DNA of 63,551 nt, taken from contig JAMDHS010000109.1 in assembly GCA_029717555.1 (NCBI GenBank), positions 1 through 63,551 of the forward strand. The letters are read 5' to 3'. Below, one piece after another: positions 1-60,454 of this stretch (position 1 is the stretch's first letter; every line of letters begins with the position of its first letter). The notes under the pieces are model-generated. The model was not told the origin of the DNA. It saw nothing but the letters and a program-made list of their open reading frames with translations, and did no database searches. The stretch is from Peribolospora baueri (lineage: Eukaryota > Basidiomycota > Peribolosporomycetes > Peribolosporales > Peribolosporaceae). Made by a program: the position numbers and the translations under genes.

Positions 1-34
<34 letters not shown>
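1..34. repeat. Poly-A run at the window's left end
   Basis: Thirty-four A residues followed by GTAAGC. They lie inside the expected intron of the Zn2Cys6 gene (poly-T on the coding strand). Could be genuine or a contig-end artefact; a shorter A run also ends the window on the right. Confidence 0.6.
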
Positions 35-38
<4 letters not shown>

Positions 39-115
39 GCGAGCGAGCGGACATCGGAGAGGCCGCGAAACGACGCGACTCGACTCGACTCGACTCGACG
101 TGATGCTGTGCTCAC

Positions 116-4285: not shown

Positions 4286-6351
4286 ATGACTATGGCCTCT
4301 TCGCCGCCCCCTCCCTCCTCCACCTCTTCGTCTTCCTCCTCCTCCTCATCTTCCTCCTCTCCTCTCCCGAAACTGTACCGCATACCCGACTCCGCACGGT
4401 CCAAGGCATCCGTTGCGGAGAAGAGGATCCGCTCCGATCATGATATGCTCACGTGGGCTCACTCGCCTGCCTACGCTCGTTATACGCTCTTCGTTCGTAG
4501 GCTTAACGAGGCTGTCGTCGATAGGCCTCTCGATGAGGAAACGCACGTCGGAGAGGTGAGTCCCGGGCACCGTCCCAGAAGGGCCAAGAAGAAGGGACGC
4601 TTAGTTTCCCCCTTCGTCGTCCGCGCCCACAGTTCGTCCACCGTCTTCTCCATCTCCTCGACGAGATGTACGCATGGGTAGACTCCATCCCGCCTCTCCA
4701 GACTCCGCAGCGGTTTGGAAACCTTGCGTTTCGAGAGTATGGAAAAAAGGTTGAAGAGGTGGGGTGGCCGTCTCCTTTTGAGCAATTATTTAATTTCTCA
4801 CCAACTGCTGGTTCGCAATTGATCGTCCACCTCGTCCTTGATCCCCATCGCCGCCTCGCGTCATCGCCCCGCCGCCTCCAGTCCGCCCTCGACCTCCACC
4901 GCTCTTTGCTCCCTTCCTCCCTCCACCCGCTCATACCCGAGCTGATCCCGTACTTCACCGACTCCTTTGGCTCCTTCGTCCGCATCGACTACGGTTCTGG
5001 CCATGAAATGTCCTTCGCCGCCTGGCTGGCCCTTCTCTACATGGCAGGCGCCTTGGAAGAACGAGATGAAAGGGCACTCGTGTCGCGGGTGTTTGTACGC
5101 TACCTTGACCTCGTCTGGACCCTTCAAAGTACCTACCAGCTCGAGCCGGCTGGTAGCCATGGCGTGTGGGGGTTGGTGAGTGGCGCGCGCGGGACGGACG
5201 AACGAACGAGCGGACGATGGCCTCTGATCTGCGGTTTCGTTTACGCTCCTTTTGCTTCTTCCTCGTCATGTCGTTGCTCGTTCGCAGGACGACTATCACT
5301 TCTTACCCTACATTTTCGGATCGGCGCAACTCCGACGTGGGCATCCTCCTCGTTCTATTCCTTCTCCGCCCTCCGCTCACACACTCCTCTCTTTTGCCCA
5401 CCAGACCATCCCACCCTCCTACCCTCTTCCGTCCTCTCCCCGCTTACCGTCTCCGCCGAAGCACGCACGAACCTCTACTTTCGCTCCATCGCCCGCATTC
5501 ACGACCTCAAGCGCGGGCCGTTTGCCGAACACTCCCCCATCCTCAACGACGTCGCCACCTCCGTACCCACTTGGTCCAAAGTCAACTCGGGCATGCTCAA
5601 AATGTACGCCGCCGAGTGCTTGGGTAAACGGCCTGTTGTCCAGCACTTTCCCTTCGGTGCGCTCGGATTTGTGTGGGGTGTGGCGCCAAACGAGGACGGT
5701 GATGGCGAGGGAGGCGGCATGCAGTCCTCGGGCAACGCTGCCCCACCCCCGGCGACCGTGCCGTCGCGAATGCCCGACCGCCCTTCGCCTTCCTCCTCCC
5801 TGATGAGCCTCACAGCAGCGCCATGGGCCCTCGCCTCCGGATCGTCCTCCGTTCCCATCATGCCCGCTGTCCATCCGTCCGGCGGAGGCGACATTGGTCG
5901 ATCCGCCGAGGCGGGCGCCTCCAAGTCCAAGAGGGTCTTCCCCTTGCCTTCCTCGTCCTCCTCCTCGTCCTCCGCCGCGTTCACGCCCGCAGACGCGAGC
6001 TCGGGCTCGTCGGAGCCTTACACCGTCTCCGGGCCCTCTCTTCGTCCCCCTCGGCCCACGCCCACGCCCACGCCCACGCCCACGCCCACGCCCACGCCCA
6101 CGTCCTCGCCCGCCCCCGCCCCCGCCCCAACGACTCGCTCGGCCACGGCCACGGCCACACTCGCCGATACAGGCTCCGCCGCGGCGGGGTCGAGTCCGTT
6201 CGGGAGCATGCCCCCGCCGAGCGTGCCCGTGGGAGCCAGGAGGTCGCCCGGCGGTGGGACGCAAGAAAGGAGACGATGGATGGACGGTGGCGGCGGGGGG
6301 GAGCGGTTGAGGAAAGTCGACGCGGACGCGGACGCGGAGGAGCAACGATGA
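4286..6351 (+). CDS. RRD: Serine/threonine protein phosphatase 2A activator (PTPA, peptidyl-prolyl isomerase type)
   Basis: Exons 4286-4555, 4633-4758, 4882-5175, 5288-5336, 5405-6351 give 561 residues. PTPA proteins bind and reactivate the PP2A catalytic subunit and were described as prolyl isomerases. Family blocks in order: the N-terminal helix ending in LNEAVVDRPL; WVDSIPPLQTPQRFGNLAFR; the core RIDYGSGHEMSFAAWL; GLDDYHFLPYIFGSAQL; then KRGPFAEHSPIL, TWSKVNSGMLKMYAAE and RPVVQHFPFG. About 220 low-complexity residues follow the PTPA core (Ser/Pro, a (PT)n tract from CCCACG repeats at about 6055-6102), so the protein is much longer than the usual 300-400. A poly-Ser tract also lies near the N-terminus. 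Whether it is Rrd1 or Rrd2 cannot be told. The second intron (4759-4881) is 123 nt, divisible by three and stop-free, so its removal is inferred from family alignment. Confidence 0.92.
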
Positions 6352-34050: not shown

Positions 34051-34335
34051 GATGGGCGGCGAGTGTGGGGCGACTAGGTGGGAGTGGTGGGAGGAGAAGA
34101 GGCGAAGGGAAGGGAAGGCGCTGGCGTGGCTTTATACGTATCCCCGGCGAGCCGTGCGTGCCTCAAGCGCAAGCCAGTCCAGTCGTCTTTCTTGTTTTCC
34201 TTCTTTTCTTGTCTCTCTCCCTCCTCGCCTTCTTCCTTCCCCCTGCCAGCCTCACCCGCGCCACCCCTGTTTCTGGCCCAGACGAGACAATCAAGGCAGG
34301 AGGAGGAGGAGGTCGACGGCGGAAGGATACCATCC

Positions 34336-35667
34336 ATGAGCCCTTCGCCCGTCTTTTGTTGGTATTGGCGAGAGGTAAGAGCCCCCGACTTCGAGATCAC
34401 CCTGAAGCAGAAGGACCCCAAGAACCCCGTTCTCACCCATGAGAGCCCCTCGGAGCTAAAACGACTCGTCGAGGGCGCCCTTAAGACACACCACACCCTA
34501 CCCCCTTCCTCCACTGACGCCAAAGTCCGCGCCGTCAGTCGACACGCTTCTAAGGACATCCTGATCATCTTTGAATCCGCTGAGTCTGTTTCCTTTTTGA
34601 GGGAGCGCAACGGCTGGGTGGCAAAGCTGGACGGGGGTCTCCTTATCACACGTCCGACCTTCCCGATCATGATACACGCGGTCCCCCTCAGCTTTGACCC
34701 GGAGAAGGATTTGGGAGAGCTCGCGGACTCCAATGCACCCATCTTCAGGGTTGATGAGGCTAGCACAATAGAGCGCGCTGTCTGGGCCAAAAAGAACTCC
34801 CTCAATGACCCCACGAAGTCCCGCTCCTCTCTCATTGTCTACCTCTCATCTCCCGACACCGCTAACCGCGCTATCGACCGCGGCGTCGTCTACCAGAACC
34901 ATCTCCTGCGGTGTGAGAAGGCTCTCCGTCCCCCCCGCCAATGCTACAACTGCCAGCGCATGGGGCATACGTCTGACCGGTGCACGGCACCGCCTACATG
35001 CTCTCGGTGTGCTGGGTCCCACGAGACCAAGAAGTGCCCTTGCCCTAATGACCCCCCCTGCACCACACCCCGGGAGTGCACCCACTACTCACAGAGATGC
35101 GCTCTCTGCAAGTCAGTGGAGCACGACAGCTCTCACGATGACTGCCCCTTCAAAATCCGAGCCAAGACGCACCAGACTCTACTGAAGGGCCCCGGCGACC
35201 TCTACCTGGTCCCCCCCTCTCGCCGTTCTGAATGAACAGGTCGCTCCATCTCCCTTCGCTGCGCTCACCCACCCCCTCTCCGATTCCCTCCCCACAACCT
35301 ACTTCTCCCTCCCCCGCCACCACAGGGCCCCCACCCCCACTCCCTCCCCCTCCTCGCCGAACATCTACATCTCCTGCAATACAACCTCCACCACGACCGG
35401 GCATCCACCCACTCCCTACTCAATTCGTCATTCTCCGAACTGCTCGACCTCTTACTCGTCACCGAACCGTACCTACTCCCCAACTCATCCACCTCGCCAC
35501 CCTCCCACCCCTGTTGGCGCCCCTTCCTCCCCACTCCCCCTCCTCGCACACCACCCAACGCACGCGTTCGATCGGTAATCTTCGCCTCCCATAATCTCTC
35601 ACCCAACCAGGTCACCCCCCTCCCTACCCACTCCCTCGACATCTCTGCAATCCGCCTCTCCATCCCT
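34336..35667 (+). mobile_element. LINE (non-LTR retrotransposon) 5' fragment: ORF1 plus start of ORF2
   Basis: ORF1 (34336-35235, 299 residues) is gag-like: a central region with a FPIMIHAVPLSFDPEKDL block, then three cysteine knuckles, CYNCQRMGHTSDRC, CSRCAGSHETKKC and CALCKSVEHDSSHDDC. About 100 nt later a second frame (from about 35320) shows the beginning of an endonuclease (exonuclease-endonuclease-phosphatase fold): LLQYNLHHDRASTHSLLN, DLLLVTEPYLLP, SVIFASHNLSP. This order fits Tad1-like fungal LINEs. The match stops near 35667, before most of the endonuclease and all of the reverse transcriptase, so the copy is 3'-truncated, which is not the usual 5' truncation of dead LINEs. It lies directly beside the split CFEM gene. 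Confidence 0.7.
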
Positions 35668-36030
35668 GACTTGCTGAAAGGTCTCAGGGACCTCGGTGCA
35701 CACACACGCAGACAACAGACTAGCGACCAATCTGTGGGCTGTCTGAAGGATGCGAATAGGTGTGACTTGAGGGGAGGAGAGCAAGAGTGGGCAAAGCGTT
35801 GCCAGCTCATCGCTCTCTGCGCGCGCAAGTCTGCGCACGCACCCCTCGTCACACGACCGCCCGCTCGCATAAGGCGAGCGGCAAACTACGTACATGTCCC
35901 CGGTGTCTCGCCCAAGTCCCCTCTCACTGACCCCGGATCCTAACACCCTCCCCCTCTAGGCCGGCTGCCGGCCGACCTAAGAACTCATAGCCTCGTCCGT
36001 GGGCGCAACGAGGACCTCCGAAAGGGGAGG
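35668..36030. other. Unassigned repeat-region DNA between LINE and Ty3/Gypsy remnants
   Basis: About 360 bp. An open plus-strand frame runs through it as a continuation of the LINE ORF2 frame but loses family resemblance. It includes a GGCCGGCTGCCGGCC near-palindrome at 35959-35973. I cannot assign it. Confidence 0.3.
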
Positions 36031-37400
36031 GAAAATTTGCCTCGGCCCAGAAGGGTCGGCCGAGGGGAACCCGGGATTAGTGACGGGAGAAGGTCAGTGA
36101 CCCTCTTTGCGCCGAGGCAGTTGCTTCGGCGTGGCAACACCCATAAGCTCCAGATAGCGATCCAGAGCCTCAGTGTCGTCTACTCCCGAGAGTGGCTCGG
36201 GTGTAACACCTCCTACAGTCCATTGGACGAAGAGGAACAACGAGTTGCCGCGCCACTCATGGCCGACAATCTTGTCGATGAACCATTCCTGGTCCGACAT
36301 TTTCACGAGATCCTGGGTCATCTTGGATTCAGGAAAACATTGGCAGCTATCTGCACTCAAGTGTGCTGGCCGTTAATTTACGCAGATGTCTCTGCGTTCT
36401 GCAAGTCATGCGCGACTTGTGCGATGATTAAATCATCGACTCAAGCCCCGCTTGGGCTTGCTCATCCTCTCCCGGTACCGAGGGTACCTTGGGAGGTCAT
36501 TGCCATGGACTTTGTGGGACCCTTCCCACCGTCACATGGATTCGATTACCTCTGGGTGATCGTCGACAAGCTGACCAGCATGGTCCGGCTTGTTCCAACT
36601 ACCACCCGGGTCACAGCGAAGGAGCTTGCTAAGCTCTTCCTGGACCAGGTGTGGAAGTTTCACGGACTTCCGAACGCGATCATCAGTGACCGCGACTCGA
36701 AGTTCGTCTCCAGGTTCTGGAGAGAGCTCCGTCGACTCTTGGGCACGCAGCTGCTCATGTCGACGGCCTACCATCCCCAGACGGATGGCTCCTCGGAACG
36801 GGCGATTCGCACCGTTTCGAGTATCCTCCGAGCGTTCGTGAGCTCGGATCAGACCGACTGGTCTGACAAGCTCCCGCAAGTGGAGTTTGCCATCAATTCG
36901 ACGGTCTCTGCAACCACTGGTTGCACGCCGTTTGAATTGAACTACGGGTACACCCCATCTTCCCTCCGCCTCGTCGCGACGGAGGTCTCGTTCCCTGGTG
37001 TCCGCAAGTTTGCGGAACAGGCCAGGCTAAACTTGATGAGAGCGCATGACGCTATCATCGAGTCTCGAACGCGCTCTACAGCGCGTACTAACTCCTCTCG
37101 ACGGGAGGAGAAGACTCCGTTCAAGGAGGGAGACCTAGTCTACCTCTCGACGGAGAACCTGGCCCTGCCGAAAGGGAGAGCCAGGAAACTTTCTCCCAAG
37201 TTCATTGGGCCCTTCCGGATCACGGAAGCACGACCGGAGTCGTCCAACTACACGTTGGCACTGCCTCCGGACTTGGGGAGGATTCACCCCAAGTTTCACT
37301 CATCTGTGCGAAGTCGTAAGCCTTGCGCGAGTCCCGCGCAGGGAATTTCTCATCATCGTTCGGCACGTAGGGCCGAAGCAACGCCGAGGGATTCATTTTT
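36030..37400 (+). mobile_element. Ty3/Gypsy LTR-retrotransposon fossil (integrase region, chromodomain-like piece)
   Basis: Fossil of the Ty3/Gypsy (chromovirus-like) family. On the plus strand, about 36290-37330, an integrase region is recognisable: HH-CC zinc-binding module, catalytic core with the retroviral integrase fold signature, and a GPF-type C-terminal module. A chromodomain-like piece (WFIDKIVGHEWRGNSLFLF) reads on the minus strand at about 36097-36300, so parts of at least two copies or a rearranged copy meet here. No protease, reverse transcriptase or RNase H region and no pair of LTRs is seen in the window. It is broken. The integrase stretch is fairly well kept, suggesting moderate rather than great age. 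Confidence 0.85.
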
Positions 37401-38019
37401 GCTGTTCTTCAAACGCCCTTATTATAAAATGTTTTATGTTGTATTGGAACGATTAACTGCCGCCCATACTGCTCAAGGACGCCTTACCTACAGGGACTGC
37501 CCAGTGAGCAGTGGCTCCTCGTCGGTTGTGGCTGCGCCAGAGAGACGGCTTGCAAACGACCGGACTCACAATCAAAAGGACACCGGCAAGTCATGTAGTT
37601 CAAAACTGCTTCACGCGGGGGAAGACTGTCCGTACCCCAGCCCTTCTCGAAATGGTGATAGGTACACCGCTGCGCGAGTACCATCGTACTCCCAGTGCCG
37701 CTGACCTGAAGCCATCTCAAGACGCCCATCGTCGTGCACGCCGGGACAGGAGGCGGGCGTTAGGCCTCTCTATCAAACGCACATAGATTTATAAATAATA
37801 CATCAACTATACTAAGTGTATTATTTGGCCATTGGCCGCAGTCAGAAGAGATAAATAGGGTTAGGGTCAGACACGGCGATTCTGTACAAGACCTTCACAG
37901 GACGACTGCGGAAGTGCTTCCGACTCGCCAGATCTTCCACGGACCCTCTCATTGTCGCTCAAGGCAGCGCGCAAGGCACCAATCCATCAAGGCAACTTCT
38001 CAAGCCAACCCAAAAGAAA
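37400..38019. other. Intergenic DNA between Ty3/Gypsy fossil and uS5 gene
   Basis: About 620 bp. The left part may still be repeat-derived. An AT-rich patch lies at 37784-37830. The right part, from about 37840, should be the uS5 promoter and 5' UTR and contains a telobox. No gene seen. Confidence 0.4.
37856..37867 (+). promoter_or_regulatory. Telobox TAGGGTTAGGGT upstream of ribosomal protein gene
   Basis: Two telomere-type units about 155 bp upstream of the split start codon of the uS5 gene. Telobox motifs before ribosomal protein genes are known in fungi as sites for Tbf1-type factors; use here is inferred from position. Confidence 0.6.
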
Positions 38020-45991: not shown

Positions 45992-48654
45992 TCAGACGAG
46001 AGAAGACTCATCGCATAGGACGAGCTGATGGTCCGGGAGAGAGAAGGGGCATGGAGAAAGAAGAAAGAGGCAAAACTCGCCTTGCGCCGCTCGGAGCCTC
46101 TTGCCGCCGTAGACGAGCCCGATGAACAGGGAGAATCCGAGAACGACGTTGAGCACGGTTTGTGTGACGAGCGATGCGATGTAGCCGTCCTTATCTGCCC
46201 ACTCGACGCTAGTAGAGGCGAGGCGAGGCGAGCGAGCGACGAACGAACGAATCACGACGGGTCAGCGCGACGACGACGACGTCGGTCTCAACTTGCGGAG
46301 GACGACGTGGGGGCATCCTACGTACTAGAAGTACGGCACGGCAAACGCAAAGGCGCACTTGACAAAGTTGAAGCTGTGAACGAGCGAGAGGTGAGGAAGG
46401 AAGACGGCGAAGAGGAGGAAGAAGGAAGGTGCCTCTTGGCTCACATTGCCACGCCGTTCATCGACTCGCTGACGTACGTGTCAACGATATAAGTCTGTAA
46501 CAGCGTCCGAAAAGACAGCCCGTCAATTCCGTTCGGGCGAGCGGCGCGGCACGGCGCGGCGCTTACCTGGACGACGCCGGCAGCGGCAACGCTTCCGACC
46601 CAGTAAATGGCGAGGCCGACGATCGGCACCGGCCACTCGAGGCGCTTGGCGACGCCGACGCCAAACATGAGTAAGCCAGCGGCGAGGAAGGGGAGGATGG
46701 GTAGCTGTTGGACGAAGAAGCGAGAGAGAGGGGCGAAGCGCGTCTCGATCGATCGATCAAAATCAACTCTTCCTTCGACCTTCTTTTCGCACTCAACCTC
46801 GAACTCCGCGCCGCGAACTCACGAGAAACCACATCCTGTACTCGGGCTCGCGAATACCGCCATTGCGTCGGACGAGGCGGGCGACCAGCGAATCGGCCAT
46901 GACGCCGCCGCCAATCTTGCCAATGACGCCTCCGATCAGGGCCGATAAAAAGAGGAGGCCGACCATGCTCGACTTGAAAGCGTAGGGCGGTTCGGCGAAG
47001 ACGAGTGGAATGGCCACGTTGACGCCTACGCTCCACCCAAAGACGAGAGAGTACCACACGGAGGGCAGGAGGATGGGCAGGTAGGTGAACATGACGAGCG
47101 GCCGGAGCGTCATCATAAGAAACTGGCGACGCAGGTGAGATCTGGTGTCAGGCCAGGGTCGTGGAAAGTTTCACGGAAGGACGTACTCACCGTTTTGGGA
47201 CGGTGCCAAGGCATCCACACCGCTCCGAGCTTTCCAGTGTAGGTCACAGGGGACAAGTCGGCACCCTCTCCTGTGCTCCCACTCGATGTCATACGACGGG
47301 TGTACAGAGCTGATGGCCAAAGGGACGACAAAATGAGAAGTGACACAAAAAAAAACTCGAGAACAGACAATCGGCTCCTCACTTTCCGGGACGAACAAGA
47401 CGATCAGCACCAGGCTGGCGGCGGCCAAGATGATGCCGAAGTAGTAGAGCCATTGCCAGCGCAAATGCTCAAGCATGAAGCCGCCGATGACGGGCCTGCA
47501 AAAGTAGAAGGGACGGCAGGGATCAGACCGTGTTTAAAGCAAGGGGGGGGATGGGATCGGAACTTACGCAGTCACCGGGCCGCCCGCAACAAACAAAGAC
47601 CAGAAGGCGACGGCGAATCCACGGTGCTCCTTGGAGAAGATGTCGGAGGCGGTGGTGGCGCCGAGGGTCAGGGGTGCCGCTCCTAAAAAGCCGATGACGA
47701 AGCGGGAGGCGTAGAAAGAGGCAAAGCTCTTAGTAAAGGCGGGCCAGAACATGGTCGCAAAATACAAGGTGGCGGACAAGATGTCTGCATGATGAAGGAC
47801 GGCTGGCCGTGAGCGGAAGGTCGGGCGGGCGCCGCGCGCGCTACGACGACGAGACGTATAGAGGGAGGGAGGACCAAACAAGCTTACAAGTGGGGCGACG
47901 GCCTACCGTCTTCGAAAGGGGGCCGTAGAAGAGAGGGCCAATGCCGGTGCCAAGAATGGTCAAGCCTTGAACGAAAAATTGGCCCACCGCGGGCGGGTAA
48001 GAACGGGGCCAAGTCGAACGCGCTCGGGGGATATGCAAGTTTGCAGCAGCGTCAAGACCCCACTCACCGAGCGAGTCGGCGCTTGCGGGTATACTGACGT
48101 GGTAATACTTGGCCACCTGGGGACCCGAGGGTCAGGGCGAGTGCGACAAGGTGATCAGCCCGACGGCGCGACACACAGCCACAGCCACGTCCGCCCGTGT
48201 CTGAGAGCGACGTACGGGTACAATAGCAATGATGTGGGCCGCGGCGCCGTAGTTAACTTGGGTGGCAAGGGAAGCGTCGGCACGACTCGGTCAGTCGTGG
48301 TCGGGTCGTTCGAGAGCGAGCTATGAGAAGGACTCACCGGAGGCGGCGCTGAAGGAGACGATGAACAAGATGAGAAGCTTTCGCCAAGTGGGCATGTTCT
48401 GCCGACCGGGGATTAGAATATGTGTCAGGATACGGTCGGGGCGACCGGGGAAGGCCAAACGGCCCGCCTGTCTCCCTTCCGGTGCTCCCTTCTCCTTGAC
48501 TTGTCCCCGGGCGACTCACCTGGGGATCGGCGGGATCATCGCTGACGACGTCCGTTCCTGGGTCGATGGCAATACCGCTGTCACACGCCTGAGGAGTCTG
48601 GGACTGGGTCAGGCTGCCCTTCTCCGCGGCGTCTGCGGCTAGGGAAAGGGACAT
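45992..48654 (-). CDS. MFS transporter (DHA1-like drug/metabolite efflux type)
   Basis: Thirteen exons: 48654-48520, 48398-48338, 48256-48216, 48116-48068, 47965-47888, 47784-47568, 47495-47383, 47309-47191, 47122-46823, 46704-46567, 46494-46445, 46373-46326, 46208-45992; phase holds, 521 residues. Twelve-helix major facilitator layout: TM1 KLLILFIVSFSAASVNYG, the loop-2 motif GPLSKTVGRRPT, TM4 SRFVIGFLGAAPLTLG, then DIFSKEHRGFAVAFWSLFVA, GGPVTAPVIGGFMLEHLRWQ (motif C region), VLIVLFVPE, a cytosolic centre RRMTSSGSTGEGADLSPVTY, and C-half helices such as LPSVWYSLVFGWSVGVNVAI, VGLLFLSALIGGVIGKIGGG, VGLAIYWVGSVAAAGVVQ and TYIVDTYVSESMNGVA. Probably a plasma-membrane proton antiporter. It is divergent to the adenylate-forming reductase, so export of that pathway's product is a reasonable guess. 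Exons are unusually small and numerous. Confidence 0.88.
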
Positions 48655-50604
48655 GTTGAGTGAGCTGTAGAGGGGTGAAGGACGAGGGAAGGAGAAGAAT
48701 GGGGGCTGCTCCGTTGCGGGGGGGATGCGGGGGCGTGTATAAATGTGAACAAAAACGCGGTCCCCTTCCTCCGTTTCTCTCGCACAAGCAAGCCTAGTCC
48801 GGCGGTGCGTGCGGTGGCGATCTGCTGCAGCCGTCCTCGCAGGGGGATGGAGATTAGGAGGGAGACGGCGTGCGTTGTATTGAAGAGCAGAGCCGACTGT
48901 CGAGACCCCGTCCATCCTCCTTGCTCGCCCCTCCGTCCTTGTCCTTGGCCTTCTCACGAGGATGCATGGCCGGACCGACGGCGATGCCAGGAACGAGCAG
49001 AGCAGCACGGACGGATGGGCGTGCTCTGTCGAGGTCGAGGGCGCGGCGAGTGGGTGGGGCGTGGCGTTGAAGACGACGTTCGGACGGCCAGCGAGCGCAA
49101 GCCCGGCGTGGACACGGGGGCCGGTCTGGACAGGATCGGGATCGACTCGTTGAGGTGATATGGGAGACCATGACCATGACCTGACTGACGTATGGACGCT
49201 GAGAGCCAGGTTGGCGAAGGAGTCGGCTCATACTCTGCCAGCGGGAGAACGATCGCCCTGACGCTGTCCCTCGAGCCCGTGACCAACTGGGCCGCCCCGC
49301 GCGGACAGCTCAGAGGGACACGGAGGACACCCCGTGCGCTGCGCTTGCCTTGCGGAGGGAGAGAGAGGGACGACGATGGCCAGTGAATGGGTGGGTGGCT
49401 CGTTTATGAGGCGGGCGTTGTCTCGGACGGCCAGGGTCGCCTCCGACGCTCCTATTTTGCCATTATATTGCGGGCTCGGAAGAATGGAGGCGAGGCGGAT
49501 CGTGCACGGTCAGTCGATGGGTCTCTCTCTTCGACGCTCTCCTCCGCTGTATATAACAGGGCCCATCGTCCAGATGCAGATGGAGACGACCTGACCTGAG
49601 AATGCGCTCCACGACGGGTGTTAAGTAGGCGCCGGGGGCTTAGGATGGATGCCACCTCTGCCGCCCACAGCGCCAGCCAAGCCAAGCCCCGGCCGGACGT
49701 GCGCGTTTGATAGAAAGCTAAGCCGAGAGTCCAAGTCGGCATCGACGGACATAGTCACGTTTGGTCCGGGCACGTTATTAACCGTCTTGCTATCCGTGTC
49801 CGGCGATCGTGTCATCAGTATTAAAAAATCGCATGTTTCACTCCACTTCCCTCGTCGCCGCTTACCATTGCTGCTTAGCTGTTGTTGCCCGTCGTGTTGC
49901 CTCCTTTACGCCACTGCCGTGCTCCGCGGACACCGGTGCCGACAGACGGACAGCTTCCGCCTTCCGGAGACTCCACCACAACTTTCCTTGCACACCACTA
50001 GCCCCCCGCCGCCCGGACGCTGTGCGATGAGGACCGGTCGGTGCCTGTCATCGCCGCGCTGTCAGAGGCCTTCCACATTCGTTCGTGTCGCCTTCCGTCC
50101 GCGATCAACGGCATCCATCCATGCCGCCAAGTCGTCGTGCCGTCGTTCTTCTTTCCGCCGTATCGACCACCGTCGCTTGCTTACGTCCTCAGCCTCACGC
50201 ATACAGTACGTGCGTCGCGTCTCCGGTCCGCCTCATGCTGGCGAGTGAGTCTGCGGATCAGACCAACGTCGGTCCACACCAAGTTCGAAGGACGCACGGC
50301 ACCAGACACCGGACTTAGCTCTTGGCCGTGCCCTGATGCTAAATAACGTCGGTGCCGGACCATGTCCGCCCGTCGTCGGGCTAGCACTGAACCGATCCTA
50401 CCCTGCGAGCACTATATTAAGGGAATGGGGGCCTCGTCTATATCCTCTTTATCTCTCGTCCTCCTTCCTCCCTCTCATTGACGCTTTCTTTCCAGCGCTC
50501 TGACACGTCCTTTCTGGCGCTCGCTGCGACTACGCACCGGAACGCATCACCTCCGCTCTCCTCCCGAGTTGCTGGCGAAACAAATAAAAACGCTTGAACC
50601 GGAA
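48655..50604. promoter_or_regulatory. Divergent intergenic region MFS transporter / reductase
   Basis: About 1.95 kb, the longest gene-free stretch in the window. Likely carries promoters of both genes: a TATTTA-like element near 48737 on the transporter side and TATATTAA at 50413 on the reductase side. Open frames inside are GC-driven and show neither splice structure nor motifs. No transposon or RNA gene recognised. Confidence 0.45.
50413..50420 (+). promoter_or_regulatory. TATA-box-like element TATATTAA
   Basis: Lies about 190 bp upstream of the reductase start codon, followed by a CT-rich (GTCCTCCTTCCTCCCTC) stretch typical of a transcription start area. Confidence 0.45.
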
Positions 50605-53600
50605 ATGGTCGCGGCTGCCATCAACCTCCCGACATCGTCCCTACCCAACCAGCATGGCATCTCTCCGGACAATCGGACCTGGACGCCGCCTGACTTCAGT
50701 ACTGACCCTGATCCCCTCCAGCTCGTTGACTGGCACGCGGAGAGGAGCCCAAACCATGTGCGGCACGTCTGGGAGGCAGCCGAGGGCGATGCTCAGGCTC
50801 AGAATGGATTGAGGCGCATGACCAACGCCGAGTATCGCAGGGCCGTCCATCGCTGCGCACGCTACCTCGCCTCGCACCTCGGCCCGAATTCGGGGAATAA
50901 GCGCTACACCATCGCCATCCTCGCCGCCATCGATTCGCTCACCTATTCCATCCTCTATTTCGCCATATGGCAGCTCGGCCACGTCTGCTTCCCCATCTCG
51001 TCCCGCAACTCCGCGCCTGCCGTCGTCCACCTGATCACCAAGGTCGGCGTGACACATGCCATCGTCGGCGGCGGCTCGATGCCCGACCTCTTTCAGCAAG
51101 TCGAGCAAGCCTTGGCCAAGGAGAGCAAGCAGGCGACCATCCAGGTCATCGAACCGCCGACGTTCGAGACCATCGCTCCCCAATATGGTCCCAACGGCCC
51201 CGACGAACCCGACGTGGAGCTCTTGTCGCCTCCGAAGAAGCCCGAGATGGAAGAACCGATGCTCATCTTGCATTCCTCCGGTGCGCTTGCCCCTTCCGCC
51301 CATCCTATCCTTCCTTTCCTCTTGCTCTGTGCTCTCCGACTGCCACGCTCAACCCTTGCCCCATCGTCCCGCCGCGGGGCACACAGGCTCGACCAGCTTC
51401 CCGAAACCCATCATCTATCGGTCCTTGCACCTTATTCAGTGTTTGGCCGCGCCCTGGTACGGTGAGGGCGACGCCTGCGGCTCTGGTGTGTCTTCTTTTC
51501 GCAATACATCCCACCCTACCCTCGCCCCGCTTTGCCGTTTTCTTGAAGACCCGTCGTTCACGCTGCTTTCGCCTTCTCTTCTCCGCTAGTCATCGGTGCG
51601 ATTGGCATTCCAGCCTTCCACGCCATGGGCGTCCATCAGCTCGTCTTGCAGCCGCCTTCCACCGGAGCCATCGTGGCCGTCCACCGCCCGACCTCACCGG
51701 TCATGGTCGCCACACCGGAGAACGTCCTCGCCGGCGTTGAGAAGACGCGGTGCGATAGCATGCTCGCCGTACCCGCCTTCTTGGAGGTGAGTGCTCGCTC
51801 GGGCTTTGACCTAAGTAAGGTGCCGGTCCGACTAACATTCGTATTGGGCGTGTGTGTTTGTTTTAAGATGTGGTCAAAGGACCCCGAGGCGATCAAGGTC
51901 CTCGCAAAGGTCGAAAACGGCGTGGTGAGCGTCACTTCTTCTGGGGTCTCCTCTAAATGCCTCTAGCCATCCCTTTGCAAGCCCCCTCGCTGATCGCGAA
52001 GATACCTTCCATCGTTTGCCATCTCAGTACTTCGGCGGAGGGCCCCTCAGCCGTCCTGCCGGCGACGTACTCGCAAGCCACGGGGTCAAGATCGTCAACC
52101 TGCTTGGAATGACCGAAGCATTCGGCGTGACGAAGTACCCTTGCAATCCCACTGGCGGCGCCGAAGACTCGGCCTGGGAGTACTTTCGCTTCGGAGACTG
52201 GGCCTGCATCCGATTCGAGGCGCAAGACGATGGTTCTGGCGTCTATGAGCTCATCTGCTGCGTGAGTGACATTCGAGATGACGACGATGCGTCGTGACAA
52301 CCTTCGTTCGTGGCCCCTTCAGACAGCTCAAATCGCGGTTCTTTCTACTCATCGGGTTTTTTTTTTTTGCAGACGAGCGACATCTACAGGCCGGCGTTCT
52401 TCAACGTGCCCGAGAAGCAAGAGTTTGCCACAAACGACCTGTTTGTCCAACGTACGTATTCTCCTCGCCTCTCTTCTTTTGTTCTTCTCCACCGGCCCGG
52501 TCCGGTCCGGCCCGGCCCGTCTGACCTTCCCCAACCCTCTCTGCAGATCCGAAGGACCCCACGCTCTGGCGTATGGTCGGACGGAAAGACGATCAGATCA
52601 TGCTTTCCACCGGCGAAAAGGTGCGACGACGACGACGACGGTCTTGCGCGTTTGCTGCGCCTCGTTGCGCCCTTCGCTCACCGATTCTTCGTCTGTCTTT
52701 TTTTTTTCTTCGCACAGACCAACCCTGGGCCCATCGGTAAGCAGAAGCAATACGACGCGGCCTAACTCCTTATCTTGCCTCGTATCCATCCCTCATCCTC
52801 ATCCTCATCCTCATCCCGTCCACGACCCATCTCAAGAGGGCATCCTCAAACAAAGCCCCTTCATCTCGGAAGCGGTCATGTTCGGACGGGCAAAGGAGCA
52901 GAACGGCGTCCTCGTCCAACCGGCGCCTGGACACGAATTCGACCCCAGCGACGAGAACAACTTGACAGCCTTCCGGAACAAGATTTGGTGAGACCCAAGC
53001 GCGAGCCCGACGGACGGGCCAGAAGCGGCGGCACCAAGACGGAGAGAGAAAGAGAGAGAAGCTTACAACCCGCCGTCCTTGACTTTTTGCAGGCCCAAAG
53101 TCGAGGAGGCCAACGCGTTCGCCCCGCAGCATTCGCGCATCTTCAAAGAGGTGAGCGGGAGTTCTCTTTTCTGCGAAGTGCGACGCGGCCCTCGCTCGCT
53201 CGCTCGCTCGCTCGCCGCATCGGTGTTGTCGTTCCTGTCTTAACTTTGAGCGCCCTACGCCTCGGACCTCGGTTCGCGTTCTACAGATGATCCTCGTCGC
53301 GAAGCCGTCAAAGCCTTTCCAGTTCACCCCCAAGCGTACCGTCCGGCGCAAGGAAATGATTCGCATTTATGAGGACGAGATCGAGGCGTGTTACAAAGCC
53401 GTCGAGGTATCATCCCGCCTCTCTGCCGGCATCGCTGCGCCGACATCGTGGTCCGAGCCCGAGACGCTTGGCTTCATCCGGACGCTCGTCGGCCAAATCC
53501 TCCAAAGCGGCGGGAGGCGATCCGAGGTGGCAGACGACGCGGATCTGTTCTCAAACGGCTTCGACAGGTGAGCGGCCACCGCACCGCATCGCATCGTGCT

Positions 53601-55336
53601 CGGCCGTAAGTTGAGCCGTCCCCCGTCCGCGTCGCTGACCGTCTCTACCGGCTCGGCTCATCCTATCCTGAAAAAAAAAAGCCTCCAAGCGACCCACCTC
53701 CGAAACTCCATCCTTTCCGCCATGCGCGCCAGCGGCGTGAAGACGGTCCAAAGCGTCCCCTCCGGCATCGTCTTCCAACACCCCACCATCGCTTCGCTCG
53801 CCGCTGCCATCTCTGCCGTCGCTCTCTCCGCCGCCGCCGCCGTCGGAAACGGCGTTCACCCATCCACCCAAAGCCCGGCTGCCGCCAAAGTGCGCGAAAT
53901 GGAAGCACTCGTCAAGGCGTACACGACCGACCTTCCCGCTCACAAGCCGGATCCGGCCCGCGGTGCGGCCGAGTCCGGCAAAGAGACCGTGCTCGTCACG
54001 GGAACGACGGGCGGCCTGGGATCTCACCTGCTCGCTCAACTCGTGGCGATGGAGTCGGTCGAGAAAGTTTATGCGATGAACAGACGCGCCAAGGACGGCC
54101 GGAGCCTGATGGAGAGGCAAGAAGCGGCCTTTACGGAGCGGCTCGGCAGCGCTGCAGCGGCTGGCAAAGTGCTGCAGAGCGCCAAGCTGGTGCTCGTCGA
54201 AGCCGCGACGGAGAAAGAGGACCTCGATGTTCAACCGGTCCTGCTGGAGGAGGTGAGCATGGGAACTTGCTCTGTCGCTTCTGCAGATCCCACCGGACTA
54301 ACCCCTCTCCGCTCCATCCCACCCCCCGCCCACTTCCCCCGCACCAGATACGGTCTTCAACGACCCTTATCATCCACAATGCGTGGCGGCTTGATTTCAA
54401 TCTTGCCTTGGCCTCGTTCAAGCCGCAGCTCGACTCCGTGGCGAACCTGGTTCGCCTCGCCCTGGGCTCTTCGCGGTCAACGCCACCTCGTATCGTGTTT
54501 ATTTCTTCTATCGGCGTCACGTCCTCGTGGACATCCCCTGGGTTCGTACCTGAAGAGCCGCTGCCGGACCTCAAGATTGCCGTCGGCGGCGGGTACGGCG
54601 AGGCCAAAGCGACGGCCGAGAGGATTCTCGAAAGGGTAGCAGAAACGACGGCTGTGAAGACGCTCAACATACGAGTCGGGCAGCTCGCCGGCTCCACGTG
54701 CAGCGGTGCGTGGGCCACGACGGACTGGCTACCGATGCTGGTCAAGTCGGCTGAAGATCTTGGCTGCTTGCCGGGCGGACAAGGGGTGAGTTGAGGGAAG
54801 AGACGGCTCGGACATGTCGTGGAGACAGAGAGATGCAGCCCCTGTGTTGCCGTGTCGCTCACCCTCGTCTCGTCCCGTTGCATCCTTTGCAGTCCATCAC
54901 TTGGCTTCCCGTCGACATAGCCGCCTCGGCCATCCTTGACTTCCGTCACTCGGCTTGCCAGACCCTTCATATCGTCCATCCGAACCCTTGCCCGTGGTCG
55001 GAGGCGGCCCGAGTGTTCTCGTCCTCCCTCGGCGCTCCGCTCGTTCCCTACGCCGAGTGGCTGCGCCGCCTGACGGAACGAGCAGACGATCCAAATGCCG
55101 CTGCGACGAATCCGGCGGTGAAGCTGGCTGACTTTTACGGGCACGGCACGACAGAGGTGGACGGCGAACACGAAATCATGGGCCTCCCCAGGCTCAGCAC
55201 GGACAAGGCCACGCGGGAAAGCGCCTCCCTGAGAAACGTTCCTCGCCTGGACGCCGAAGACGTCGAAAGTTGGATCGCCTTCTGGAGGCGCACAGGCTTT
55301 CTTCGTCCGCAAGCGGCGGACGTGCGGTCAGGTTAG
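50605..55336 (+). CDS. Adenylation-thiolation-reductase enzyme (NRPS-like carboxylate reductase)
   Basis: Fourteen exons: 50605-51280, 51387-51461, 51590-51786, 51868-51924, 52028-52261, 52373-52451, 52547-52620, 52718-52736, 52837-52987, 53093-53150, 53287-53567, 53682-54252, 54348-54785, 54893-55336; 1117 residues. Such enzymes activate a carboxylic acid as an adenylate, load it on phosphopantetheine and release it as aldehyde or alcohol with NADPH. Adenylation domain: ILHSSGSTSFPKPI (phosphate loop, about 220-232), FHAMGVHQLVL, YFGGGPLSRPAGD, NLLGMTEAFGV, WRMVGRKDDQIMLSTGEK. Carrier domain: DADLFSNGFDSLQATHLR with the pantetheine Ser634 split by an intron. Reductase: VLVTGTTGGLGSHLLAQL (NADP loop, 741-747), FISSIGVTSS, Tyr907/Lys911 in YGEAKATAE, and LPVDIAASAILDF. 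No condensation domain. Not Lys2: the N-terminal part and the 1117-residue length fit basidiomycete adenylate-forming reductases. Substrate unknown. Confidence 0.93.
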
Positions 55337-56218
55337 GTTTCTGGGCTGAGCGACACCGCCGACACGTGCAGAAGGTTAGATTAGAAAAGAAGACTTGTCC
55401 CGGTACAATGGATCTCCCATTGACGATAGAGTCCATCATATCATCGCCCAATGTGGGGAGGCATGTAGACACGCACGGGACGTGCTCTTCTGTTTTTCTT
55501 CATATATAACTGCAACGTCTCCTTTCGCCCGCCTTTGGACGAGCTCGCTCTCCTCTCTCTCCTTTTCTTTCTCTCGCCCCGACGTCCAGTGTGTGAGCGA
55601 AGGGCGGACAGAGTGAAGCACGTGACGCTCCTCCTGGGCGACAGTGGTCGCCGTGTGCGGAGCCAAGCCGACGTTGCGTTGACAGGTCGCTCGGCAGCTC
55701 GGGCTTGGCCGATCGGCCTCCGCCCGGCAGCTCGGCACACGAAAGTGCCGCGGGCGGGCGACCGACCACCTCCACCTCCACCGGGAGTGAATTTTTATGT
55801 CGTCGGATTCGATGCGAGCATGAGGGACTCCTTCTCGTTCCACCACGAGCACCCTCGTCGCAACTGTCGGTGCCGTGGAGATTCCTTTGCCTTTTTCCAT
55901 CACAATTGCCCGTCGTCACCTTTCCCGCCGTCGCCTTGCTCGCCGTCATCGCCTTTCTCGCCGTCGCCCTTCTTCCTGTCCCTCCGCTGTGCCGCTCGGT
56001 TTGAACCCTGGAGGGACGGAAGGGAGAGAGAGAGTTTGGAGATACAGATACGTATGTATGGGTAGCCGCTCGTCATCCAATCGTCTTTTGCGACTTCAAC
56101 CCCGGCGCGCCACACTCGTTTTGCTCCTTTCCTCCGCTCGTCTTGCTTCTTTTCCGCCTGCCCCGTTTTCTGCCTCCACCCCGCCGGCCTTCTCTCATTT
56201 CTTCGGTCGCAGCAAGCT
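55337..56218. promoter_or_regulatory. Intergenic region reductase / second MFS transporter
   Basis: About 880 bp, tandem orientation, so it holds the 3' end of the reductase and the promoter of the transporter. Repeated GCCGTCG(CC) units at about 55923-55975 and a GAGAGAGAG run at 56024-56032. A TATATA element is at 55502-55507. No gene seen. Confidence 0.4.
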
Positions 56219-58346
56219 ATGAACGACCTCGAGAAGCTCCCTGTTTCCGCCCGAGACTCCAATCCGCTCACCGAACATGCTTCGCACTCCAGTGGTGATG
56301 ATGGGGACGGGCAGAAGGACGCGAAGGAGGACAATGGCAAGGACCGCCTCCTGGTCGACTGGGACGGCGACATGGACCCGTCCAACCCGCTCAACTGGTC
56401 CGAAACGAAGAAGTGGGCGGTCATCGTGGCCATCTCGACGGCGAGCATGTGCGTGACGTGCACGAGCAGCATGATCGCCCCGGCGTTCGCCGGCATCGCC
56501 AAGGAGTACCATGTCGGTACGGAGGTGGCCATCCTCGGCCTGTCGCTCTTCGTGGCTGGCTTGGGCCTAGGGCCGCTCTTCCTAGGGCCCCTCTCCGAGT
56601 TCTACGGGCGGAATAGGATCTACTACACCTCCTACATCATCTTCCTTCTTCTCAACTTGCCCGTCACGTTCTCCAACAACGTCGCCGTCTTCATGATCTT
56701 CCGCTTCGCCTCTGGCGTCGCCGGCTCCTCCTTCCTCTCCGTATCTGGAGGCTCCGTGTCGGACCTGTGGCCGAGGCATCGGGTGGGCAGGCCAATGGCC
56801 TTCTACACCGCGTCGCCATTTCTGGGACCCGTCATGGGCCCTCTCATCTCCGGCTTCATCAACCAGAACACGACATGGCGATGGACGTTCCGCGTCATCC
56901 TCATCTGGTGCGCCGCCGAGCTTGTCATCCTCTTTCTCTTCATTCCCGAGACGTACGGTCCGCTCTTGCTCAAGAAGAAGGCACAAAGACTCAGGAAGGA
57001 GACCGGCGATCCGAGGTGGAGGGCACCGATGGAGGAGAGCGAAAAGAGCGTCTTGAGGACTGTGCTCATCAGCTGCACCAGGCCGTTCAGTGAGCGTTTT
57101 CTCCTTTCACAGCCCGTGGTCCGTGTGGTTTGCGCTGACTCCCGGCTCTTTCTCCGCCCCATGCGCTCCTTGCATTGCAGAGCTTCTCGCCTTCGAACCC
57201 GTCCTCTTCCTCCTTTGTTTGTGGAGCGCCATTATCCTCGTGATTTTTTTTTCGTCACATTCCATCCGTTATGCCGTCCTTCCACTCACAATGCGCCTGT
57301 TATCTTATCGTCCAATCGCAGGGCATCCTTTACCTCTTCTTCGAAGCGTTCCCGATCGTTTTCCAGGAGGGGCATGGCTTGTGAGCACTCGGGTTTTCTA
57401 TTCACTCATGCCAGCCTTTAACTTTTGCATTTGCATCCTCACACTTGTGTCCCCTGGACTCCAAACAGCAACGTGCAATGTGGCGGGCTCGCCTTCCTCG
57501 GCATCGGCGTCGGCCTGATCCTGGGCCTCTTGAACGCATTGACCTTCTGGAGCACTCGTTACGAACGAGTCGTCAAGGCCAATGGCGGCTCGGCGCCTCC
57601 TGAAGCGAGGCTGCCCATGTGCATGCTTGGTGCTCTCCTGGTTCCGATAGGTTAGTGGAGATGGAGTTTCTGCGTGATAGGCTCGCGTCGAGACGAACGA
57701 ATGATGTCGCAGCTGGATGAGCTAATCCTCTTCCGGTGAAATGGGTGCAGGCATGTTCTGGTTCGCCTTCACCTCTTACCCGGCAGTCCACTGGATCGTT
57801 CCCGTTCTATCCGGCGTGCCGTTCGGCTGGGGAGTCATCATAATCTACATCGGCGTCTTCACCTATACCATCGATCATTACCGTATCTTCGCCGCGTCCG
57901 CTTTGGCTGCGAATAGTTTCATGCGGAGCAGCTTTGCGGCCGGCTTCCCGTTGTTCGCCACTCAGATGGTGAGTCGAGTCGTCGGAAATGGGAAAGCGAC
58001 CGAGTCCGACTGACGCAGCTCGGTCGGCCTCATCGAGTTCGGCGGGATCTGATGATGCGTTTACCGCTTTCCATGGCTGTGCTCGTTGCTCGACAGTACG
58101 ATCGCTTGGGCACGCCGGGCGCGTCCGCTCTCTTGGCTGGTCTTAACGTCCTCATGGTACCCCTTCCGTGAGCACTCTTTCCATCCCAGAGTAGCGAGGC
58201 CTCTTGGACTGCCATCAAGCTACGACAGTTTTCCCTCCGACTGACGCTTTCCTCTTCCTTTGCCCGTCTTCCACCCCCACTCCCGCAGTTTTCTTTTTTA
58301 CAAATACGGCCCCGCCTTGCGCTCGCGCTCGCGCTTCCTCTCGTGA
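56219..58346 (+). CDS. MFS transporter, DHA1 family (polyamine/drug antiporter-like)
   Basis: Exons 56219-57089, 57181-57239, 57322-57380, 57469-57650, 57751-57968, 58097-58167, 58289-58346; 505 residues. Order: acidic cytosolic N-tail with VDWDGDMDPSNPLNWSETKK (the DPxNPxNWS motif of fungal DHA1 exporters such as Tpo1/Flu1), TM1-2, the GPLSEFYGRNRIY loop, SGVAGSSFLSVSGGSVSDLW, ASPFLGPVMGPLISGFINQN (antiporter motif C), FIPETYGPLLLKKKAQRLRK (the PETY motif and central loop), ILYLFFEAFPIVFQEGHGF, and the C-half signature IDHYRIFAASALAANSFMRS then AAGFPLFATQMYDRLGTPGA. Likely plasma-membrane export of small molecules. It follows the reductase in the same direction 0.9 kb downstream, so a role in product export or self-protection is inferred. 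The C-terminus is short and Arg-rich. Confidence 0.93.
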
Positions 58347-59175
58347 TCTTGCCCATCATGTCATCTCTCGGCCTCCTTCCCTCCCTCCCCACTCCCCCTG
58401 TCAAGTTCGGTTTCATTCTCCATTTTATTCATGCTTAGACGGACTGGCCATGGCAAAATGTACCACACCATACATAGGCATTTCCAGTCGTCGCACTGGC
58501 CGAGCACTGACTGACATCGCAACAAGGCCCTCCCTTCCGCCCATCTCCGATCTTGCTTACGCCGCGTCGCGTCGATCCCGGAGATAATCGTCCGAACTGC
58601 TGCTATCACCAACTGCGACGATCCCCCAGCCTCGTCGACCGCTCGTCCCGTCTCGTCAGCATCACCGCCATGTCGAGTCATTACGAGCGGCCGGCTGGCT
58701 CCATTCCCATCCGCTCGACAGTGTTCCATACCAAACATCAGCATCTCCAGTCCATCCATCACAACTCACTGGCCGAGCACCGACATTGTGCGAGATGACC
58801 TCCGCCCATTTCCGATCTCGCTCGCGCCGCGTCGCCGCCGCACTCGGACGTATTCGTCCGATCTCCTATCGTCCAGTGCGGGGGACGGGTGGGAGGGAGG
58901 GGAGGAGGGGCAGGTCGTCCGAATATCCATGATCACCGCAACGTCGAGTCAGAGTCAGGGAGAGTAGCTAGCCAGCTGATCACTGCGCTGCTCGACCGCT
59001 CGTTGGCGTCTTCCAAAAGCCATACGGGTCGAGGTCAGAAGGCCGTCATAGAAGGAGACGGGCACTCAAGTTTAGATTCTTCGAGCCGTCTCTGTTCGCT
59101 TTTCCTCTTTTCTGCCTCTAGAGCTCGTTCAAAGAACGGCGGTTTTCCCTCCTCCTCGCTCCATCGCCGCTCCTC
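58347..59175. other. Intergenic region containing a diverged tandem duplication
   Basis: About 830 bp between transporter and methyltransferase. Its middle is a two-copy direct repeat (separate entry). The open frames across it are repeats of each other rather than genes. Confidence 0.5.
58461..58870 (+). repeat. Diverged direct tandem repeat, two copies, period about 263 bp
   Basis: Copy 1 (58461-58607) and copy 2 (58724-58870) align over about 147 bp. Both run through CCATACCA/CCATAC, GCATNTCCAGTC, CACTGGCCGAGCAC, CCGCCCAT(C/T)TCCGATCT, CGCCGCGTCG, and AT(A/T)(A/C)TCGTCCGA to CTATC. A second shared block, ATCACCGC then TCGAGTCA, recurs at about 58663-58682 and 58928-58947, so the duplicated unit probably exceeds 220 bp. 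By eye about one in four to five positions differs. Confidence 0.65.
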
Positions 59176-60454
59176 ATGGGATCACTCGAGCAGCGCTCTG
59201 CGGACGGCTCGCAAGACCGCCGGCCCGACGCTGGTGAGCGCATCCCGGCCGGAAAGACGTGGTCCACCGACGCCTATCGTACGAACGCGAGCTTCGTCTA
59301 CGACGCCAGCCACTCTGCCCCCGTACTCGGATTGCTGGACGTCCGGCCGGAGGATGACGTTTTGGAGTGAGTCCCCGATCGGTGCCGAGGCGATGTCTGA
59401 CGGCGAGGGGGTGTCGCGCTGGAGGGGGGTACTCGTTTGACCTTTACCTTTTGCCTGCCCCTGCTCATCGTGCACCAGTCTCGGGTGCGGCACCGGCGAA
59501 CTAACTATCCAGCTCGCCCGCACGGCTCGCTCCGTGGTGGGCGTGGACGCTTCAAAGGAGATGATCGCCGGCGCCCAGTCCCTGCTCGACCAGGTGCGCT
59601 CTTCCGTCCCCTCGGCTTCCACCACCGCCGCCAACGTCTCTTTCAAAGTCGTCGACGCGCAGCGCCTCGTGCCAGATCTGCTGCTGCAGCCGCCATCGTC
59701 CGCGTCCGCACCTTCTGTTCAGCCTTCGATGGAAGGAGCTTTCAGTGCCGTGTTCAGCAACGCGGCGCTGCATTGGATGACGGACGACCACGCAGAGGTC
59801 TTGAGAAGTGTCAAGATGGCGCTCAAGCCGGGAGGCAGGTTCGTGGGCGAGATGGGAGGGTTCGGAAACGTGCAGGGTGAGCGACGGGCGGTGTCGAAAA
59901 TTGCTTTCCTGCATTTCATAAGCGTCTGACCTGACCGGACCGTCCTTCTCCGCGTCCCGCTTGACGTTTTGCAAATACAAAGGTGTTCGAGCTGGCCTTA
60001 TCAACGCCCTCCTCACCCGTAATCTGCCTGGGCCGGACAGGGATCCTTGGTTCTGTGCGTCTCTCATGGTTTCGGAAATCGCATCCTTGGCGCCATGTAC
60101 GAAAATGCTCACACTTTCCCCTCCCCCGCCCATCTCGCCCTCCACTCAACGCCACTCTCTGTGTCTCTCTCAGTCCCGACGACGAAACACTACGCCCGTC
60201 TGCTTACTGAAGCGGGCTTCAACGTGTCCAGCATATCGCTCATCCCGCGTCCTACGCCTCTGCCCACTGGCGTCATGGGCTGGCTGCGCACGTTCGCGAG
60301 CCCGTTTACGGAGGGGCTGAGCGAAAAGGAGAGGGAGGAGGTGTACGAGGAGGTGTGCGAACGCGTCAAGTGGGATCTCAGGGACGACGAGGGACAGTGG
60401 ACGCTCATGTATGTCAGGCTCAGGTTTGCCGCGACCGTCCCGGAGATCGCCTGA
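59176..60454 (+). CDS. Class I SAM-dependent methyltransferase
   Basis: Exons 59176-59366, 59479-59876, 59983-60054, 60174-60454; 313 residues. Motif I is VLDLGCGTGELTIQLART (about 62-79), with its Asp codon split by intron 1. Then VVGVDASKEMIAGAQ (motif II acidic residue binding the ribose), VDAQRLVPD, FSAVFSNAALHWMTDDHAEV and LKPGGRFVGEMGG. The C-terminal part PWFFPTTKHYARLLTEAGFN followed by a SPFTEGLSEKEREEV helix is like trans-aconitate methyltransferase-type O-methyltransferases (COQ5/Tam-like fold), which methylate small carboxylic acids or phenols. No signal peptide, so cytosolic. It is the third plus-strand gene after the reductase and second transporter; a tailoring role in the same pathway is inference. 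All catalytic motifs look intact. Confidence 0.9.

What the first reader, a model, noticed from the sequence alone, without database searches (positions are those of the whole stretch)
45992..60454. Candidate compact metabolic gene cluster around an adenylation-thiolation-reductase enzyme
Seen: an NRPS-like reductase (50605-55336) with intact phosphate loop, carrier serine, NADP loop and Tyr/Lys pair; an MFS transporter diverging from it; a second DHA1-type MFS transporter 0.9 kb downstream; and a small-molecule methyltransferase 0.8 kb further. Known: fungal adenylate-forming reductases turn carboxylic acids into aldehydes or alcohols, and fungal pathway genes often cluster with transporters and tailoring enzymes. 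Inferred: these four genes make, methylate and export one product. Basidiomycete yeasts have few such clusters, so this set may be undescribed.
Basis: partly seen in the sequence, partly recalled or inferred. Interest (0 to 1): 0.75.

Follow-up and report, generated by a model that had tools for sequence, protein, structure and literature searches.

The report
Fungal carboxylic acid reductase, ordinary neighbours
The stretch holds a complete fungal enzyme gene that probably turns an acid into an aldehyde, next to two transporter genes and a methyltransferase gene, and nothing found here shows that the four work together as one pathway.

Summary
The central one (50605-55336) splices into 14 exons and a 1125-residue A-T-R protein, best matched by basidiomycete proteins of this kind (47% to Tulasnella sp. 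330). The five residues found essential in Neurospora carboxylic acid reductase (CAR) have counterparts, so it probably reduces an unknown carboxylic acid to an aldehyde.

The cluster claim is not supported. Five other places in the genome carry the same adenylation end. Flanks of the four testable ones held no relative of the transporters or methyltransferase; the only non-reductase match to any window ORF was 23 residues long, 18 kb away. Named fungal relatives of the reductase, the divergent transporter and the methyltransferase are mostly from different groups; in the one species on two lists (Cristinia sonorae) the two genes lie on different contigs. Spacing looks ordinary, shared upstream words are not clearly above host DNA, and no further biosynthetic enzyme was recognised in the ORFs scanned. 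Expression and real cross-species synteny could not be tested, so a lineage-specific cluster stays possible (about 10%).

Verdict: a new member of a known enzyme kind with generic neighbours; its one oddity is a divergent A5 motif.

The parts
50605..55336 (+). A-T-R carboxylic acid reductase (adenylate-forming reductase), 1125 aa, 14 exons: 50605-51280, 51387-51485, 51590-51786, 51868-51924, 52028-52261, 52373-52451, 52547-52620, 52718-52736, 52837-52987, 53093-53150, 53287-53567, 53682-54252, 54348-54785, 54893-55336
   Evidence: hand splicing, independent spliced alignment of P0001, Pfam, 620 database hits
53998..54021 (+). NADPH-binding loop TGTTGGLG of the reductase domain
54594..54608 (+). 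catalytic Tyr915 (codon 54594-54596) and Lys919 (codon 54606-54608), aligned with Tyr844/Lys848 of Neurospora CAR
   Evidence: phmmer alignment to 8aep_A; codons checked; residue roles in PMC5826065
53566..53682 (+). carrier serine Ser642, codon split by an intron (exon end 53567, exon start 53682)
   Evidence: PP-binding match
45992..48654 (-). MFS transporter 1, 521 aa, 13 exons as modelled, transcribed away from the reductase; ends and some borders unsure
56219..58346 (+). MFS transporter 2 (drug-efflux-like), 505 aa, 7 exons as modelled
59176..60454 (+). class I SAM-dependent methyltransferase, 313 aa, exons 59176-59366, 59479-59876, 59983-60054, 60174-60454

Best explanation
The central gene encodes a working basidiomycete carboxylic acid reductase. 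The adenylation domain activates a carboxylic acid with ATP, the phosphopantetheine arm on Ser642 takes it as a thioester, and the NADPH-dependent reductase domain releases the aldehyde (mechanism inferred from homology; substrate unknown). It is one of several divergent copies in this genome and acts on its own or with partners elsewhere. The two MFS transporters and the methyltransferase are members of broad families that happen to lie beside it, each with its own history; no shared pathway is shown.
For: Full A-T-R architecture and end-to-end similarity to basidiomycete relatives. The five residues reported essential in Neurospora CAR (H237, E433, S595, Y844, K848; PMC5826065, passages) have counterparts H269, E471, S642, Y915, K919. 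Six places in the genome carry this adenylation C-terminal domain, the window included. In the flanks of the copies on C11, C90, C115 and C121 no relative of the transporters or methyltransferase was found, while the same search finds the transporter-1 paralogue on C130 at E = 2e-60. The nearest Pfam-recognised genes around C11 are a DPP-IV gene and a kynureninase-like gene (7 ORFs scanned there). Named fungal relatives are mostly from different groups: reductase (Agaricomycetes, Dacrymycetes), transporter 1 (two smut fungi, one Beauveria), methyltransferase (Rhodotorula, Sporobolomyces, one Cristinia). No P450 match on C10.
Against: Two transporters beside a reductase is unusual for a random gene: 26 MFS places by hand count in 22.1 Mb, a lower bound. 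Fungal CARs are known inside clusters with MFS genes (HerB in Hericium, PMC11643632, passages). The closest paralogue is only about 51% identical, so unlike neighbours there do not rule out a cluster here. Transporter 2 was not searched against the protein database (cap). One 23-residue match (E 1.9e-8) of an ORF at window 4001-4678 lies about 18 kb from the C11 copy. Seven-letter words shared by all four upstream regions (8) exceed every one of 40 dinucleotide shuffles, and those in at least three of four (53) are reached by 2.5% of shuffles; against random host stretches 29 of 400 sets reach 8.
Confidence: 0.75

Rival explanations
1. A small lineage-specific cluster: the reductase makes an aldehyde or alcohol, the methyltransferase methylates it or its precursor, and one or both transporters export it.
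For: Physical order and the presence of two transporters beside a CAR. Hericium herB lies in a cluster with an MFS gene (PMC11643632, passages). Slight excess of shared upstream words over shuffles.
Against: No relative of the transporters or methyltransferase at four paralogous loci. Mostly non-matching taxonomic profiles. Cristinia sonorae has relatives of the reductase (P0018, contig 646172) and of the methyltransferase (P0135, contig 103288) on different contigs; only its listed proteins were compared. No P450 match on this contig and no PKS, terpene synthase or second core enzyme among Pfam matches of the ORFs scanned (39 of 86 ORFs of 150 aa or more outside the finding).
Confidence: 0.1
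2. A partial association: the reductase and one transporter (transporter 2, 0.9 kb downstream, or the divergent transporter 1) work together, for example to expel a toxic aldehyde or take up the acid; the methyltransferase is unrelated.
For: Adjacency. Both transporters match drug-efflux-type MFS models, though below the curated cut-offs.
Against: The transporter-1 paralogue on C130 (52% identity in its longest stretch) shares no other window ORF with its surroundings, so transporter 1 is not tied to a CAR there. No listed MFS match lies on C11, C113, C115 or C121, and the nearest on C90 is about 21 kb from the CAR (lists incomplete).
Confidence: 0.15

Closest known systems
Basidiomycete (type IV) carboxylic acid reductases, e.g. 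TvCAR of Trametes versicolor (named in PMC5826065); in the search list, a protein named carboxylic acid reductase of Boreostereum vibrans (P0044, 39% identity)
   Same: A-T-R order, length, the AMP-binding_C_3 end, catalytic motifs (tested against P0044 and the other hits, not against TvCAR itself)
   Different: Divergent sequence (best hit 47%); A5 motif LGMTEAFG instead of YGxTExG, with one extra residue
Neurospora crassa CAR (type III; reductase domain solved as 8AEP)
   Same: Essential His, Glu, Ser, Tyr and Lys; reductase domain aligns over its length (E 1.5e-49)
   Different: Different fungal CAR type; substrate preference cannot be carried over
HerA/HerB cluster of Hericium erinaceus (orsellinic acid PKS plus CAR; PMC11643632, passages)
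   Same: A basidiomycete CAR with an MFS gene nearby
   Different: No PKS, monooxygenase, SDR or aldehyde dehydrogenase was recognised beside the reductase here; herA and herB were shown by expression
Lys2 L-aminoadipate reductase
   Same: A-T-R architecture
   Different: The window protein scores only 76.8 bits against the equivalog model, cut-off 1030.1; a gene on C162 holds the strongest reductase-domain match in this genome and is my guess for Lys2, not tested

Membership tests
Carboxylic acid reductase (A-T-R, adenylate-forming reductase) | Adenylation, carrier and NAD(P)-binding thioester reductase domains in one chain, in that order | tested here: met
   Pfam matches at 42-382, 462-587, 612-685 and 747-992 of 1125 aa
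Carboxylic acid reductase (A-T-R, adenylate-forming reductase) | Essential residues His (PxxH), Glu (GEK), carrier Ser, Tyr and Lys (GYxxxK) | tested here: met
   H269, E471, S642, Y915, K919; alignment to 120 hits; Tyr and Lys also by alignment to 8AEP; roles from PMC5826065 (passages)
Carboxylic acid reductase (A-T-R, adenylate-forming reductase) | Adenylation motif A5, G(S)TExG(T) | tested here: inconclusive
   T372 and E373 kept, but the residue before the Gly is Leu (Tyr in 113 of 120 hits, Leu in 3) and one extra residue follows where 119 of 120 show a gap
Carboxylic acid reductase (A-T-R, adenylate-forming reductase) | ATP- and NADPH-dependent reduction of a carboxylic acid | not testable with these tools
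   needs purified protein
Type IV (basidiomycete) CAR | Groups with characterised basidiomycete CARs and apart from ascomycete types | tested here: inconclusive
   Groups with basidiomycete hits, but no ascomycete CAR was in the trees and TvCAR itself was not fetched
L-aminoadipate reductase (Lys2) | Equivalog model TIGR03443 over its cut-off | tested here: not met
   76.8 bits against 1030.1
Biosynthetic gene cluster | Neighbouring genes conserved together across loci or species | tested here: not met
Biosynthetic gene cluster | Co-expression and one product | not testable with these tools
   no RNA or metabolite data
trans-Aconitate methyltransferase | Equivalog model over its cut-off | tested here: not met
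   41.7 bits against 297 and 38.1 against 320; relatives carry that label in some sources

The most novel reading that the evidence does not exclude
A lineage-specific yeast cluster in which a CAR with an altered A5 substrate motif reduces an uncommon acid, a methyltransferase caps the product and the flanking transporters export it, giving a metabolite not yet described.
Probability: 0.08. Interest if true: 0.5.

Novelty: new member of a known kind. Interest (0 to 1): 0.2.

Why it matters
If the enzyme is active it adds a divergent basidiomycete CAR, with an unusual adenylation motif, to a group used to make aldehydes. For the genome scan it is a caution: a reductase, two transporters and a methyltransferase side by side are common gene families, and adjacency alone does not make a pathway.

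Tried and rejected
A lesion in transporter 1 was considered because its fifth exon needed an acceptor that skips a stretch that looked like coding sequence. Alignment of the Testicularia relative shows no residues missing there, so this was dropped. In that alignment exon 46445-46494 is missing and 47191-47495 is read as one exon, with frame marks, so borders there are less sure; the first exon and the last 30 residues have no support from the relative.

The first methyltransferase splice was out of frame. The corrected exons were first joined by eye, and the typed letters were later confirmed against the window.

Shared upstream words: 8 seven-letter words in all four 700-base upstream regions against a shuffle mean of 2.1 and maximum of 7. 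Random host stretches (not chosen to be upstream regions; the pool includes C10 and the CAR loci) reach 8 in 29 of 400 sets. No eight-letter word is in all four. No motif is claimed.

Host identity could not be named.

Literature: (open-access library only, listings) showed no paper on this gene set that I recognised; (CAR with Tulasnella) returned none. Papers seen: PMC9605436 abstract and two sections; PMC10168641 first of four parts; PMC11643632, PMC5826065, PMC10107818, PMC12866564 and PMC10422843 passages only.

Full report
What is there. The window is all of contig C10 (63551 bases) of an unnamed 22.1 Mb genome of 178 contigs. The four genes of the finding are real. I spliced them by hand; the methyltransferase exon ends were then corrected to 59366 and 59876 and checked. 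A spliced alignment of the Tulasnella relative P0001 returned the same internal exon borders for the reductase. For the methyltransferase the relative's alignment agrees except for one extra short intron; for transporter 1 it differs at two exons and covers neither end. Transporter 2 was not checked by a relative.

The enzyme. The 1125-residue protein has, in order, AMP-binding, AMP-binding_C_3, PP-binding and NAD_binding_4 matches. The protein search found 620 hits among the 7993 best-sharing candidates and listed 120. The best is Tulasnella sp. 330 at 47% over 98%. 112 of the 120 rows carry organism names, all Agaricomycetes or Dacrymycetes by my knowledge of the genera; 8 are unnamed. Five residues were reported essential in Neurospora CAR: H237, E433, S595, Y844 and K848 (PMC5826065, passages). 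Their counterparts here are H269 in PAFH, E471 in GEK, S642, Y915 and K919. Tyr and Lys were placed by direct alignment to 8AEP, the others by motif. PMC10168641 (first of four parts read) gives the three-step ATP/NADPH mechanism that I adopt by homology. PMC9605436 (abstract and two sections) sorts 84 fungal CARs into seven clades, one mainly basidiomycete; I could not place this protein in that scheme. The substrate is unknown.

An oddity. The A5 motif reads LGMTEAFG. The residue before the glycine is Tyr in 113 of 120 hits and Leu in 3, and there is one extra residue where 119 of 120 show a gap. The Thr and Glu are kept. This may alter substrate choice; whether it does is not shown.

Copies in the genome. 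AMP-binding_C_3 matches at six places: C10, C11, C90, C113, C115 and C121. C113 looks like a PKS hybrid. In a tree of 125 rows the window protein and C11 form a fully supported group with five Tulasnella rows (FastTree). A 36-row IQ-TREE (36 of the 125, C121 and P0030 among those left out) gives 100/100 for window, C11 and four Tulasnella rows. The place of C90 differs between the two trees. On how rare such genes are: passages of PMC12866564 report 335 NRPS-like clusters among 824 in 96 yeast genomes (ascomycete yeasts included), and passages of PMC10422843 report one per genome in three Cystobasidium species and three in Naganishia kalamii.

Is it a cluster? Four tests. (1) Paralogue neighbourhoods: window ORFs of 60 aa or more (stop to stop), plus both transporters, were searched against the flanks of C11, C115, C90 and C121 (about 7 to 19 kb a side) and the C113 piece at E up to 1e-4. 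Apart from frames overlapping the reductase, the only match in these was 23 residues long (E 1.9e-8), about 18 kb from the C11 copy, from ORF 4001-4678, which carries a weak match to the start of PTPA. The same search found the transporter-1 paralogue on C130 at E = 2e-60. A laxer search (E up to 0.1) with the three neighbour proteins and 22 relatives found nothing in smaller flanks. C113 flanks were not really tested, because the fetched piece is mostly the gene. Around C11, 7 ORFs were scanned with Pfam: two matched, a DPP-IV gene about 5 kb off on one side and a kynureninase-like gene about 2.4 kb off on the other, with unrecognised ORFs between. (2) Taxonomic profiles: transporter 1 has named fungal relatives in Testicularia (40%), Pseudozyma (38%) and Beauveria (28%) (80 hits, the rest bacterial or unnamed). 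The methyltransferase list has 9 named fungal rows of 120 listed (7964 hits), eight from Rhodotorula or Sporobolomyces and one from Cristinia sonorae, the rest bacterial or unnamed. The only named species shared with the reductase list is Cristinia sonorae, where the two proteins come from contigs of 646172 and 103288 bases. These searches score only the candidates sharing most words and list at most 120, so absence from a list is weak evidence. (3) Spacing and other genes: gaps are 1.95, 0.88 and 0.83 kb. Of 86 ORFs of 150 aa or more outside the finding, 39 were scanned with Pfam, plus one inside. Matches over the cut-off were PTPA, GH2/mannosidase, Use1, Nup120, RanBP1, ribosomal S5, PhoD phosphatase and retroelement integrase domains; weak ones were a transcription factor domain and a 5'-nucleotidase domain. 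No P450 match lies on C10. (4) Upstream words: above dinucleotide shuffles (none of 40 reach the observed 8) but not clearly above random host stretches (29 of 400 do).

How telling is the adjacency? MFS places number 26 by hand count, a lower bound, since only 9 of 138 first-look candidates were scored. Two beside one gene is unusual for a random locus, but the locus was picked after the fact, and other close MFS pairs may occur (C120, C129). The methyltransferase has no other match in the genome, is under the cut-off of each of the 25 NCBIfam models shown of 39, and its best solved relative by sequence is 3ccf (E 1.2e-38).

Verdict. A probably active divergent basidiomycete CAR with generic neighbours. 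The cluster is possible but unsupported.

Noticed in passing
P0001-P0004, P0030 against window 50605-55336 and C11 (L009): One set of Tulasnella CARs groups with the two yeast copies at full support, apart from other Tulasnella CARs (P0008, P0040), suggesting old gene duplication or transfer between lineages.
   Followed up: partly
L014 (C113:110000-119900): Neighbouring frames with CAR-like adenylation end, carrier, ketosynthase, acyltransferase, second carrier and thioester reductase domains: a likely adenylation-PKS-reductase hybrid, perhaps a better natural-product candidate than the window.
   Followed up: partly
window 34078-37701: Retroelement-like frames: zinc knuckle (weak), integrase zinc-binding, integrase core and Tf2-1-like SH3 matches.
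   Followed up: no
L029/L030 (C130:98300-100202): Paralogue of transporter 1 (52% in its longest stretch) whose surroundings share no other window ORF.
   Followed up: yes
G000 C115:56054-56557: A P450 match about 7 kb from the CAR copy on C115.
   Followed up: no
window 2-724 (-): Weak match to a fungal transcription factor domain at the contig end (22.1 bits, cut-off 23).
   Followed up: no
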